The notes below the pieces were generated by a model that did no database searches, had not been told where the DNA came from, and saw only the letters and a program-made list of their open reading frames with translations. From Acidobacteriota bacterium (lineage in GTDB: Bacteria; Acidobacteriota; Blastocatellia; UBA7656): DNA of 64,000 nucleotides. The stretch covers positions 1 through 64,000 of the forward strand of contig JACQDB010000118.1 in the NCBI GenBank assembly GCA_016201275.1, in the 5' to 3' direction. Position numbers and translations under genes: made by a program. Below are positions 7,725-57,894 of the stretch, one piece after another; within the stretch, counting starts at the first letter, position 1, and each line of letters starts with the position of its first letter.

Positions 7725-7847
7725 AGTCCGTTGTCTGATGTCCGGTGTCCGGCGTCCGCTTTTTTATTGTTGACGGTTATCGAGCCTGCCTTTTTCTAAC
7801 CGCTTTGAAAGATGGACACCGGACATCGGACGCCCGACATAAAGACT
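7725..7847. repeat. Heptad-register array, inverted arms (AGTCCGT TGTCTGA TGTCCGG TGTCCGG CGTCCGC / ATGGACA CCGGACA TCGGACG CCCGACA)
   Basis: GTCC/GGAC words spaced exactly 7 nt in both arms; fills the lysC-asd spacer. Confidence 0.8.
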
Positions 7848-33651: not shown

Positions 33652-33656
33652 ATAAA

Positions 33657-33733
33657 TGTCCGTAGCCCGTTGTCCGCAGTCCGTGGTTGGCAGCGCTGCT
33701 TACATCAACGGACAATGGACAACGGACAACGGG
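33657..33733. repeat. Heptad-register array, inverted arms (TGTCCGT AGCCCGT TGTCCGC AGTCCGT / CAACGGA CAATGGA CAACGGA CAACGGG)
   Basis: 7-nt spacing in both arms; fills the spacer between the pfkB-family and ompA-like genes. Confidence 0.8.
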
Positions 33734-33740
33734 CAGATCA

Positions 33741-34587: not shown

Positions 34588-35367
34588 TTGACAAGATATG
34601 TTTTTGCCCTCGTTTTGCTCACCCTTTTCGGGGTCGCAGCGTTCCCCCCGGCGATTTCGGCGCAAACGCCTTGCGCTGCGCCGGAATTGATTTGCAAAGC
34701 TGCCGTCAATCAAGACCGCTCGCTTTATGTGCGCGACCATTGCCGCTACGAACAGAAGATTTATGTCGAGCGTTTCAAACTCACCAACGGCGCGGAAAAG
34801 ATGGAAGAGGTGCGCGAAACCGGCGTGCTGGTGCAACCGGCCAACGCGCCCGATAAAACCGGCAACACGCCTGTGGATGTGCGCGTCATGTCCGACACCG
34901 ATAAAAAAGGCAACCCCAAAGGCAAAGTCAATGCTGATGATAAAACCCTGTTGTCGTTTGGCGCGGTATGGGATTTGGCCTTCTTTCCCTTGTTGCCGGA
35001 AAAATTGAAGAACTACAATTTTCAGGAAGTCGTTGCGGAACGCAAAACCGAAAAGTGGTATCGCTTTGCGCCCAAACCCGAAGTCACAGACCAGCCGCTG
35101 GCCTCCGGCGTGGTGATGCTCGACCCGCAAACCGGCGAAGTTATGACCATCAAAATCGAAGGCTTGCACAACCTCGACGTACTGGATAAAAACGCCGGTA
35201 AATTGAAATCGTTTTACGCCACCATTGACTATTCGCAATTTCAAGGCGCGCTGCGAAGTCCTACGCTGGCCTCGGGTGGCGGCGTATCCGACATTCCCAG
35301 ATTCGGCGGCTCCTTCCGCTTCAAATTTCAGGAAGGCAAATACGTCATCGTCAGCAAGATTGATTAA
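34588..35367 (+). CDS. Hypothetical exported protein
   Basis: Signal-peptide-like N-terminus ending SAQTPCAAPE. Confidence 0.65.
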   Translation: MTRYVFALVLLTLFGVAAFPPAISAQTPCAAPELICKAAVNQDRSLYVRDHCRYEQKIYVERFKLTNGAEKMEEVRETGVLVQPANAPDKTGNTPVDVRVMSDTDKKGNPKGKVNADDKTLLSFGAVWDLAFFPLLPEKLKNYNFQEVVAERKTEKWYRFAPKPEVTDQPLASGVVMLDPQTGEVMTIKIEGLHNLDVLDKNAGKLKSFYATIDYSQFQGALRSPTLASGGGVSDIPRFGGSFRFKFQEGKYVIVSKID

Positions 35368-35368
35368 T

Positions 35369-35487
35369 AGTCATTAGTCCTTAGTCCCTCGTCCTTAGTT
35401 GATTGCCAAGTCTTGAAAGCGGCTCCTGTAGCCGGTTTCAGGTCAATGCTAAGGACAAGGGATTAAGGACTAATGACTAAGGACTAA
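35369..35487. repeat. Heptad-register array, inverted arms (TTAGTCC-like / AAGGACT-like)
   Basis: AGTC-type words at 35369/76/83/90/97; GGAC-type words at 35453/60/67/74/81; fills the spacer before uvrC. Confidence 0.85.
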
Positions 35488-35492
35488 GCGCA

Positions 35493-37454
35493 ATGACACT
35501 ATCCGAAAAACTCAATAACTTGCCGGTGCAGCCGGGTTGCTACGTCTATCGTGATGAGCGCGATAAAATTCTCTACGTTGGCAAGGCCAAGAATCTACGC
35601 AATCGTGTGCGCCAGTATTTTCAATCGTCGCGCTCGCACGACGCCAAGACCAACGAACTGGTCTCGCGCATTCATGACGTAGAGTTGTTTGTCACCGATA
35701 ATGAAATCGAAGCTCTGGCGTTGGAATGCAATCTCATTAAACGCCACAAGCCGCCTTTCAATATTCTGTTGAAAGACGACAAGCAGTACCCGCATATCAA
35801 AATCACCAAAGAAAAAGCGCCTCGCGCTATCATCGCCCGCAAAATTACCAAAGACGGGTCGCGCTATTACGGCCCGTTTTTGCCACCGTCGCTGGCGTAT
35901 CAAACGCTCGATTTAATCAATCGCAATTTTCAACTCCGCACCTGCACGATGGAGATTGACGGCAAGGCTGACCGCCCTTGTTTGGAATATCACATCAAGC
36001 GTTGTCTGGGGCCTTGCGTTAAAGATTTATGCACGCTGCCGCAATATGATGAAGCGGTGCGCGACGTGGAATTATTGTTGCAGGGCAAGACCGCCGATCT
36101 GGAAGAGACTTTGAAGGAACGTATGTTGAAGGCTTCGGAGGAACTCCGGTTTGAAGCGGCGGCGCGTTACCGCGACCAACTCAAAACCATCAGCAAACTC
36201 GGCCAGCAGCAGAAAATGATGACCGTGTCGGGCGACGACATAGACATCTTCGGATATTACCGCGAGGCGCATCAACTGGCGCTTTCCTTGTTCACCATGC
36301 GCGAAGGCAAAGTCGTAGGCAAACGCGAATTTTTCTGGGAAGACATAGCCGAGCCGTTCAATCCCGCGCCGTTCATCGAACAGGCATTGAAGCAATATTA
36401 CGCGGCGGGGCATTACGCGCCGGGTGAAGTTTACGTGCCTGTGGATTTTGAAGACCGCGAACTGCTGGAAGAATATTTGAGCGAACAACGCGGGCGGCGC
36501 GTGCATATCGTGTCACCGCAACGCGGCGTCAAACGCGATTTGATTGACCTGGTGGAAAAGAATGCGCGCTTGAATTTCGATCAACGCTTCCGCGTGCAGC
36601 GCCCCGATATGACCAAAGTTTTGCAGGAACTGCGCGAGGCTCTGGAATTGCCTGAACTGCCTGTGCGTATTGAATGCTTCGACATCTCGAATATACAGGG
36701 CGACGAGAACGTGGCTTCGATGGTGGTCTGTGAAAACGGCGTGATGAAAAAGAGCGACTATCGCAAATTCAAAGTGCGAACGGTTGAAGGCGAAGCTAAC
36801 GATTTCCAATCCATGTACGAAGTCGTGGGGCGGCGCTACGGTCGTTTGTTGAAAGAAGAAAAACCGTTGCCGAATCTGGTGTTGATTGATGGCGGCAAAG
36901 GGCAACTGGCGGCGGCTGCAAGAGCCTTGCACGAGATTGGCTTGGAGGCTTTGCCTACGGCATCGCTGGCGAAAAAAGAGGAGTTGTTATTTGTCAAAGG
37001 TCGGGCGGAACCTTATCGCATAGACCATCATTCGCCGGTCTTGCACCTGATGCAGATGATCCGCGACGAAGCGCACCGTTTCGCCGTGACCTATCACCGC
37101 AAGCGTCGGGCGATGCGCGATTTTCAAAGTGAACTGACTTCCATCCCTGGCGTCGGCGAAAAATTGAAAGCGCGCTTGCTGCGAAACTTCGGCAGTTTGA
37201 AACGGGTATCGGAAGCGAGCTTTGCGGAATTAAAACCCTTCGTTGGCGAAACTCAGGCGCAACGCATCGTTGACCACTTCGCCGATTTGACAAAGCTGGT
37301 GAGCGAAGAAGCAAAACTAGAAGAAGACTGGCAACGGCAAGATGAGATGGAATTGGTAGAACTGGTAAAGCCTTCACGAGAAGCCCTCGAACAAGGCCAG
37401 ACAATTTCGCACGAAGAAGTGAAAAAACGCCTGATGAAACAAAAGCAGAAATAG
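35493..37454 (+). CDS. uvrC: Excinuclease ABC subunit C
   Basis: PVQPGCYVYRDERDKILYVGKAKNLRNRVRQYF GIY-YIG domain; ECFDISNIQGDENVASMVV; C-terminal HhH. Confidence 0.97.
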   Translation: MTLSEKLNNLPVQPGCYVYRDERDKILYVGKAKNLRNRVRQYFQSSRSHDAKTNELVSRIHDVELFVTDNEIEALALECNLIKRHKPPFNILLKDDKQYPHIKITKEKAPRAIIARKITKDGSRYYGPFLPPSLAYQTLDLINRNFQLRTCTMEIDGKADRPCLEYHIKRCLGPCVKDLCTLPQYDEAVRDVELLLQGKTADLEETLKERMLKASEELRFEAAARYRDQLKTISKLGQQQKMMTVSGDDIDIFGYYREAHQLALSLFTMREGKVVGKREFFWEDIAEPFNPAPFIEQALKQYYAAGHYAPGEVYVPVDFEDRELLEEYLSEQRGRRVHIVSPQRGVKRDLIDLVEKNARLNFDQRFRVQRPDMTKVLQELREALELPELPVRIECFDISNIQGDENVASMVVCENGVMKKSDYRKFKVRTVEGEANDFQSMYEVVGRRYGRLLKEEKPLPNLVLIDGGKGQLAAAARALHEIGLEALPTASLAKKEELLFVKGRAEPYRIDHHSPVLHLMQMIRDEAHRFAVTYHRKRRAMRDFQSELTSIPGVGEKLKARLLRNFGSLKRVSEASFAELKPFVGETQAQRIVDHFADLTKLVSEEAKLEEDWQRQDEMELVELVKPSREALEQGQTISHEEVKKRLMKQKQK

Positions 37455-48858: not shown

Positions 48859-49383
48859 TTAGAAAGACCTTTTCACGCTTTTGAAAAACGAGCCTAAAAC
48901 ATCCGATGCCGTGTGACTGGCTGCGCCCAGCCACAAACCGGCGAAGGCGGCAATCAGGTAATTGCGTTTGATGGGCTTGAGGATTTCCCATATGTAGGTG
49001 AAGGCATCTTGAACTTCGCTGACGCCGTTGACGCGATGATGCAGATATTTTTCTCGCGCAAACAACACGATGGCGAGCAGCAGCGACACCACAATTAAAA
49101 AATAGGCGATGCGAATCAAGGTGCCGAAGACGATGCCGTGCGAAAAGCGTGAGCGATGCGAGAGCGCCACTTTATACGGCCACCAGATAAAACGCAGCGG
49201 CCCCCAACGTGTGTATTGCTTGCTCTGTATGTCGAGATCAGGGCCGAACATCAAGCCGCCGAACAGCATGGCAACCGTAGTGATTAACGTCAGCGTCCAG
49301 TTGCCGGTGAAATAATAGCTGACCAATGCGGTCGGCACGGCCAGAGCGAAGGTGATGAAATCATGAGTTTTTGCAGATGGCAT
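48859..49383 (-). CDS. DUF2227-like putative metal-binding membrane protein
   Basis: MPSAKTHDFITFA...LMFGPDLDIQSKQYTRWGPLRFIWWPYKVALSHRSRFSHG. Confidence 0.85.
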   Translation of the reverse strand: MPSAKTHDFITFALAVPTALVSYYFTGNWTLTLITTVAMLFGGLMFGPDLDIQSKQYTRWGPLRFIWWPYKVALSHRSRFSHGIVFGTLIRIAYFLIVVSLLLAIVLFAREKYLHHRVNGVSEVQDAFTYIWEILKPIKRNYLIAAFAGLWLGAASHTASDVLGSFFKSVKRSF

Positions 49384-49395
49384 AAATTAAAAAAT

Positions 49396-49419
49396 GAATA
49401 GTGAATAGTGAAAAGTGAA
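49396..49419. repeat. Heptad-register array GAATAGT GAATAGT GAAAAGT GAA
   Basis: GAA at 49396, 49403, 49410, 49417; 13 nt upstream of the minus-strand gene start. Confidence 0.65.
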
Positions 49420-49467
49420 ACAAGAGAACAGCAATTACCGTGATGAGAAATCAATTCCATCACCTTT

Positions 49468-49637: not shown

Positions 49638-49943
49638 GTGTTGAACCAAGAACGCGATCAACTGCGGCAGAAAGAATGTCAGATCATCGAAGGGCACTTG
49701 ATGGCAGATTACGTCCATATGTGCATAGAGATTCCGCCCAAGCACGCGGTGTCGTCGGTGAGCGGTTTCTTGAAGGGCAAAAGCGCCATAGCCATCGCCC
49801 GTTTACAAGGCAAAGAGCGCAACTTTAATGGCGAAAGTTTCTGGGCGCGAGGCGATGCCGTGTCAACCGTAGGCTGCAACGAAGAGCAAATCCGGCGTTA
49901 CATTCGCAATCAAGAAGGTAGCGATGGAAGCGGACTATTTTGA
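49638..49943 (+). pseudogene. IS200/IS605-family Y1 (TnpA) transposase remnant, 5'-truncated
   Basis: EILEGHLM-type IIEGHLMADYVHMCIEIPPKHAVSSVSGFLKGKSAIAIARLQGKERNFNGESFWARGDAVSTVG...YIRNQEGSD; HUH motif is YVH instead of HVH. Confidence 0.85.
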
Positions 49944-57234: not shown

Positions 57235-57613
57235 AATCCCACCGACGGCAGTCGGGGGAGGCTTAAAATCCAACCTACAAAACGCCGTGCAACCTCAACC
57301 AATCCCCCCGACGGCAGTCGGGGGATGGTTAAAGCCCAACCTACGAAACGCCGTGCAACCTCAACCAATCCCCCCGACGGCAGTCGGGGGATGCTTAAAG
57401 TCCAACCTACGAAACGCTGCCAACGAGAAACCAATCCCCCCGATTGCCATCGGGGGGATTGGTTAAAGTCCAACCTTGCCCGAGGCTCAAGGTTGGACTT
57501 TAAGTATCCCCCAACGGCAGTTGGGGGGATTGCAAAAAAACTTTGCTTGCTGGGTGTGTAGGCTGGACTTTAAGCATCCCCCAACTTAAGCATCCCCCAA
57601 CTGCCGTTGGGGG
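57235..57613. repeat. 66-bp tandem hairpin array followed by inverted-orientation hairpins
   Basis: Units 57235-57300, 57301-57366, 57367-57432; partial unit from 57433; inverted copies near 57508-57527 and 57594-57613. Confidence 0.9.
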
Positions 57614-57894
57614 GATTCAGACGAATTGCCAAACTGCCTCGGCTCCCGTTGGGGGATTCAGACGAATTGCCTAACGGCCTCGGCTCGCAGTTGCTAGGTT
57701 TTTCAGCAGCGCAGCAGCCTGATTTCATTGGCTTTTTCAGCACTTGGAATTATTGAACCTCCCCTCAACAAGGTGAAGTTCAATCATTCCAGGCGCGAAC
57801 CGCAACGTCAGCGCTTGATTGGTGTGTTTCAATTTGAAATTGTACAAAGTCGAGCTTAGACAGGAGGTTGGCGCTTCGTTTCTGGCACTTCATT

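What the first reader, a model, noticed from the sequence alone, without database searches (positions are those of the whole stretch)
35369..35487. Third heptad-register inverted array upstream of uvrC with a different word (TTAGTCC / AAGGACT)
AGTC-type words at 35369, 35376, 35383, 35390, 35397 and GGAC-type words at 35453, 35460, 35467, 35474, 35481: perfect 7-nt spacing over two arms. The array ends 6 nt before the uvrC start. A different heptamer with the same periodicity and inverted layout argues that the period and fold, not the sequence, are what is maintained or generated.
Basis: partly seen in the sequence, partly recalled or inferred. Interest (0 to 1): 0.72.

Follow-up and report, generated by a model that had tools for sequence, protein, structure and literature searches.

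The report
Intercistronic hairpins of changeable seven-base words
Between neighbouring genes, this soil bacterium and its relatives carry DNA hairpins built from a seven-base word repeated about four times on each side; the same gene gaps tend to carry such hairpins in related genera, but almost always with a different word, so site, seven-base step and hairpin layout outlast the sequence.

Summary
Two heptad arrays lie in inverted layout at 35368-35487, filling the gap between an upstream stop codon and the uvrC start (RNA fold -68.2 kcal/mol, z -10). The host is a Blastocatellia bacterium (Acidobacteriota), by its nearest UvrC relatives. About 26% of same-direction gaps of 50-250 nt in the fetched host DNA hold a period-7 array, against 0.4% of coding windows. 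At the uvrC gap, sister genera carry inverted heptad arrays with other words: TTAGTCC here, TTTGTAC, AGTCTGG and GGGGGTT elsewhere. Across 34 curated cross-genus comparisons no two genera shared a word at one gap, and same-gap words were no closer than shuffled ones; a later check found one shared word (ATTGCGG, nuoJ|nuoK, G002 and G006). Arrays still co-occur at orthologous gaps (odds ratio about 6-9). But within one word family TAGTC is 86-99% conserved, copy number is not preserved, and nothing shows RNA folding is what is selected. Best reading: a new, word-swapping variant of known intergenic heptanucleotide repeats.

The parts
34588..35367 (+). Upstream gene (259 aa, no Pfam family); its stop codon TAA directly precedes the left arm
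35368..35398 (+). Left heptad arm (TAGTCAT TAGTCCT TAGTCCC TCGTCCT TAG)
35399..35448 (.). Loop of 50 nt, partly paired in the predicted fold
35412..35442 (.). Copy of a separate dispersed REP-like palindrome (CTTGAAAGCGGCTCCTGTAGCCGGTTTCAGG) sitting in the loop
35449..35487 (+). Right heptad arm and its outer unit (CTAAGGACAAGGGATTAAGGACTAATGACTAAGGACTAA); contains AAGGA at Shine-Dalgarno distance from the ATG
35493..37454 (+). uvrC (GIY-YIG, UvrC RNase H and HhH domains)
33656..33740 (-). Inverted heptad array of word GTTGTCC between the ompA-like gene (stop) and the pfkB-type kinase gene (start); relatives carry arrays AGTAGGC, AGAAAGC and an octamer array at this gap
7726..7836 (.). Inverted heptad array of GGTGTCC type in a same-strand gap

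Best explanation
These are dispersed hairpin repeats made of two inverted arrays of a heptanucleotide, which fill the space between the stop codon of one gene and the start codon of the next on the same strand. Shown: period 7 regardless of word, about 3-5 units per arm, arms that match each other better than the arms of other elements, location in intercistronic gaps, co-occurrence at orthologous gaps, and words that differ between genera at the same gap. Inferred: units are gained and lost by 7-nt replication slippage, and the arms are kept matched by template switching on the DNA hairpin (known for quasipalindromes). Some copying process spreads a word and its unit variants through one genome, and at a tolerated gap the array is repeatedly replaced, so the site outlives the word. 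No gene-specific function is needed; the gap tolerates a hairpin spacer and the host may use it secondarily, for instance as an mRNA hairpin or, for this word, as a Shine-Dalgarno source.
For: Period: 54 of 57 periodic inverted repeats in fetched host DNA; 60 of 72 in word-unselected loci of relatives. Site: 45 of 56 period-7 inverted arrays lie in same-direction gaps and 5 in convergent gaps by the gene calls; stop-to-arm median 3 nt, arm-to-start median 11 nt. Arrays in 77/296 same-direction gaps against 4/61 divergent gaps. Word turnover with site retention. Turnover within one genus: nuoJ|nuoK spacer is 4 nt in G004 but holds an array in G006. Arm matching: 0.903 within against 0.805 permuted for all words, 0.921 against 0.898 within one word family, both p about 2e-4; shared unit variants 28/136 against a null of 0.149, p 0.016; a perfect 41-nt arm pair that mirrors an off-register interruption, L128 3357-3528. 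Template switching can create and perfect hairpins (PMC8794818, PMC7202029, PMC8604942). 7-nt slippage was proposed for heptanucleotide repeats (Mrazek 2007 as cited in PMC4679880 and PMC4692102).
Against: Slippage and template switching do not explain how one word reaches dozens of loci with unrelated loops; no mobilising enzyme was identified. Within the TTAGTCC family only two of seven positions vary freely, which suggests sequence recognition or recent common descent. Co-occurrence at orthologous gaps beyond what gap length explains is compatible with selection for an intercistronic hairpin.
Confidence: 0.5

Rival explanations
1. Functional intercistronic RNA hairpin: selection keeps a stem-loop between genes (mRNA stability, processing or translational uncoupling), so any word that pairs will do and words drift freely.
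For: Arrays sit in same-direction gaps, rarely in divergent ones; strong folds at the uvrC gap in all four genera with arrays; retention at orthologous gaps despite word change.
Against: G-U-compatible mismatches on the transcript strand (30) are not clearly above the A-C mismatches that would be G-U on the other strand (22). Genus g2 and many smaller genomes have few or none, and presence varies within a genus. An RNA stem does not need a 7-nt period.
Confidence: 0.25
2. Non-autonomous mobile element (MITE or REPIN-like) whose terminal inverted repeats are the heptad arms, moved whole by a transposase such as a Y1/RAYT enzyme.
For: High copy number of one word in one genome; a separate REP-like palindrome is strongly associated with array loops (14 of 34 copies); Y1_Tnp genes in most of these genomes.
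Against: Loops of copies are mostly unrelated; no target-site duplication is visible at the nuoJ|nuoK filled and empty sites; Y1_Tnp counts do not separate genomes with and without arrays (genus g11 has 9-13 matches and no period-7 arrays in the sampled loci), and the weak rank correlation (0.48) goes with genome size.
Confidence: 0.12
3. Dedicated array-writing system that synthesises heptad repeats from a template, with lineage-specific templates.
For: Fixed period with changing word, genome-wide sharing of a word, fixed strand polarity of the main family (54 elements with GTC on the 5' arm, none opposite by that scan; one opposite case).
Against: No candidate gene was found or systematically sought; periods 8-11 also occur at lower frequency.
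Confidence: 0.06
4. All arrays descend from one ancestral array family at each gap and simply diverged base by base.
For: Many host words share GTCC; the L200 gap keeps the loop palindrome in host and G002 with words one base apart (TTAGTCC, GTAGTCC); G004 and G006 share recognisable arrays at obgE|nadD and rplY|pth.
Against: Same-gap words across genera are no closer than shuffled ones (mean distance 2.97 against 3.02 +/- 0.12, P 0.385), e.g. TTTGTAC, AGTCTGG and GGGGGTT at one gap.
Confidence: 0.07

Closest known systems
GGGAATC heptad repeats of Xanthomonas and GGGGA(C/T)T of Nostoc (Rehm et al. 2015, PMC4692102)
   Same: Intergenic 7-nt repeats, commonest length four units, 70-75 inverted pairs per Xanthomonas genome, under-represented between divergent genes, mostly between the same genes in two species, some unit positions conserved and others variable.
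   Different: There one word per lineage was studied, with a G-quadruplex focus. Here many words coexist, they do not need to be G-rich, they fill the gap from stop to start, and the word at a given gap differs between genera.
TAACTGA repeats of marine Beggiatoaceae (MacGregor 2015, PMC4679880)
   Same: Intergenic heptamer arrays a few nt upstream of start codons; indels in 7-nt steps between close Cyanothece strains.
   Different: Direct repeats almost only (one inverted set of 170), one word.
Long simple sequence repeats / STRR heptanucleotides (Mrazek 2007 and the Calothrix repeats, both known here only as cited in PMC4692102 and PMC4679880)
   Same: Heptanucleotides are the most abundant longer class in many genomes; a 7-nt polymerase contact was proposed.
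   Different: No site-retained word replacement or arm pairing is described in the citing text read here.
REP/REPIN elements (PMC3116915, PMC3733652)
   Same: Dispersed extragenic palindromes able to form hairpins.
   Different: Not 20-40 nt tagged palindromes; arms are tandem heptads with unrelated loops; no tie to a RAYT found.

Membership tests
Intergenic heptanucleotide tandem repeats (LSSR/STRR class) | Tandem unit of 7 nt beyond chance | tested here: met
Intergenic heptanucleotide tandem repeats (LSSR/STRR class) | Many dispersed, mainly non-coding copies | tested here: met
Intergenic heptanucleotide tandem repeats (LSSR/STRR class) | Copy-number change in 7-nt steps between strains | tested here: inconclusive
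   Only genus-level pairs available; G004/G006 obgE|nadD arrays differ in unit number and sequence
REP/REPIN-RAYT | Short tagged palindrome (GTAG or CGTC) | tested here: not met
   Arms are tandem heptads of many words; the loop palindrome is a separate element
REP/REPIN-RAYT | Link to a RAYT (Y1) transposase | tested here: inconclusive
   Y1_Tnp counts do not separate genomes with and without arrays
MITE | Target-site duplication at filled versus empty site | tested here: inconclusive
   None visible at nuoJ|nuoK, G006 filled and G004 empty; one site, different species
Known RNA family (Rfam) | Match above gathering score | tested here: not met
   Only sub-threshold MIR2630 hits, 31.8 against 144 bits
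Intrinsic terminator | G+C-rich stem followed by a T run | tested here: not met
   Direct reading: the right arm is followed by GCGCAATG, no T run

The most novel reading that the evidence does not exclude
Intercistronic sites carry a heritable 'array state': a genome-wide process keeps building a 7-nt-step inverted array at the same gene junctions over genus-level time while replacing the word, so period and geometry are transmitted or regenerated without the sequence.
Probability: 0.2. Interest if true: 0.85.

Novelty: new variant of a known kind. Interest (0 to 1): 0.58.

Why it matters
Heptanucleotide repeats have been catalogued for decades without an explanation of why seven. Gaps where sister genera carry different words on the same layout separate sequence from period and make the question testable: compare strains for unit gain, arm-to-arm copying and word replacement. 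They also warn that a well-paired, apparently compensated intergenic stem need not be a selected RNA, because a mutational process at DNA level could keep the arms matched.

Tried and rejected
Known RNA family: no. Phage-borne origin: only 2 of 2.9 million viral contigs hold the 21-nt perfect array. RNA-level selection by G-U excess: not supported. Arm copy-number symmetry: none. Loop homology between host and G002 at the same gap: none on average (5.6 against 5.3 for shuffled pairs) except the L200 gap, which shares the palindrome. Shine-Dalgarno as the general reason: fits AAGGAC here, but start-proximal arms elsewhere are CAGACTC or CCCCCAA. G+T-rich 5' arm as a universal rule: 64/66 in host but not in the other genera. 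Nested arrays: automated scan found none; two hand-seen cases only (host L173 mosaic; G002 at the L201 gap).

Full report
Observation. The sequence at 35368-35487 holds two heptad arrays in inverted layout, with cores exactly 7 nt apart at the coordinates given; four of the ten words are one-base variants. The left arm starts directly after the TAA of the upstream gene and the array ends 5 nt before the uvrC ATG. The folded strand is far more stable than shuffles (-68.2 against -31.75 kcal/mol). In the loop sits a copy of a second, separately dispersed palindrome.

Host and context. UvrC relatives place the window in Blastocatellia, near Chloracidobacterium sp. UBA7656 and Blastocatellia bacterium AA13. 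The host genome has 6.84 Mb in 162 contigs.

Genome-wide anatomy. In 1.2 Mb of host DNA, 54 of 57 strongly periodic inverted repeats have period 7. With equal numbers of comparisons per period, same-direction gaps of 50-250 nt hold period-7 arrays in 77 of 296 cases, against 10 for period 8 and 0-2 for each other period; coding windows 3 of 733; divergent gaps 4 of 61; convergent 7 of 85. The fetched contigs were partly chosen because they carry the TTAGTCC word, so the host density is biased upwards; in the unselected window contig it is 2 of 14, in G002 21/110, G003 6/25, G004 4/21, and in G001 0/9. Elements in same-direction gaps lie a median 3 nt from the stop and 11 nt from the next start, so they fill the gap. 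These gene calls are mechanical ORFs. Arms are mostly 3-5 units long; left and right counts are uncorrelated.

Words. The host's commonest word is AGTCCTT (28 of 66 elements), alongside related GTCC words and unrelated ones such as ATTGGTT, ATTGCGG and AGTGATG. In the TTAGTCC family the unit is not free: TAGTC is 86-99% conserved, while the first and last positions vary. Arms within an element match better than arms of different elements, for all words and inside one word family, and share unit variants modestly (p 0.016). One relative has a perfect 41-nt arm pair that mirrors an out-of-register interruption (L128), which points to copying of one arm from the other or to inverted duplication.

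Orthologous gaps. At the gap before uvrC the host and three sister genera carry inverted heptad arrays with four different words; at pfkB|ompA there are three heptad words and one octamer array; the divergent promoter region between ompA and the next gene has none in any of the four. Similar pictures hold at nuoJ|nuoK, ybaB|recR, rplY|pth and rpmA|obgE, and in host-G002 pairs. With hand-curated words from 15 gaps, none of 34 cross-genus comparisons was identical, and same-gap distance equalled the shuffled expectation (2.97 against 3.02). G006 was not in that table; adding it would include one identical word, ATTGCGG at nuoJ|nuoK in G002 and G006, and G004 and G006, which are one genus, share words at some gaps.

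Co-occurrence. Host-G002 gaps: neither 22, one only 4 and 4, both 12, odds ratio 16.5, p 2e-4; a few of these loci were found because they carry arrays and one pair is not orthologous. All pairs among five genomes: odds ratio 8.9; 6.2 when the query gap is at least 30 nt; 6.3 (p 0.015) when the host is also excluded. These pairs are not independent, so the p-values are optimistic; the direction is consistent.

Distribution. In five gene neighbourhoods of about 29 relatives plus partial ones, 60 of 72 periodic inverted repeats have period 7, in five families with dozens of words. Array count rises with genome size (rho 0.76) and many genomes under about 4.3 Mb have none. Y1 transposase counts do not separate genomes with and without arrays.

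Mechanism. Shown: the period, layout, arm matching, site and word turnover. Inferred: slippage in 7-nt steps and hairpin template switching, a mechanism documented for quasipalindromes and hairpin evolution (PMC7202029, PMC8794818, PMC8604942). Unknown: how a word spreads between loci. RNA pairing as the selected trait is possible but not supported by the wobble test.

Known versus new. Inverted heptad pairs between genes were reported in Xanthomonas, with four units as the commonest length (PMC4692102), and heptamer arrays next to start codons in Beggiatoaceae and Cyanobacteria (PMC4679880). New here, as far as the searched open-access literature shows, are the many coexisting words and the replacement of the word at a retained site. 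Subscription literature was not searchable.

Noticed in passing
window 35412-35442; 34 copies in 1.2 Mb of host DNA: A dispersed REP-like palindrome (TTGAAACCGGCTCCTGTAGCCGGTTTCAAG and variants) lies inside array loops in 14 of 34 copies although arrays make up under 1% of the DNA; some other copies appear to lie in coding sequence.
   Followed up: partly
window 49638-49943: Fragment of a Y1/IS200-like transposase (Pfam Y1_Tnp, profile positions 35-121 only) with a single, unpaired heptad run (TGAATAG) about 220 nt upstream at 49382-49427.
   Followed up: partly
L163 5235-5316, L190 7321-7421; L170 10120-10432; L278 2213: Inverted arrays of other periods (10-11 nt ACACAGATGA type, 8 nt GGGGAGAC type, 8-9 nt CTCTGCGT type) share the same layout at lower frequency.
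   Followed up: no
L200 8560|9307 gap in host and its counterpart in G002 C2: Host and G002 keep the same loop palindrome while the arm words differ by one base, a possible case of in-place word change.
   Followed up: partly
window 57235-57686: Tandem 66-nt, 41-nt and 16-nt repeats containing CCCCCGACGG-type palindromes.
   Followed up: no
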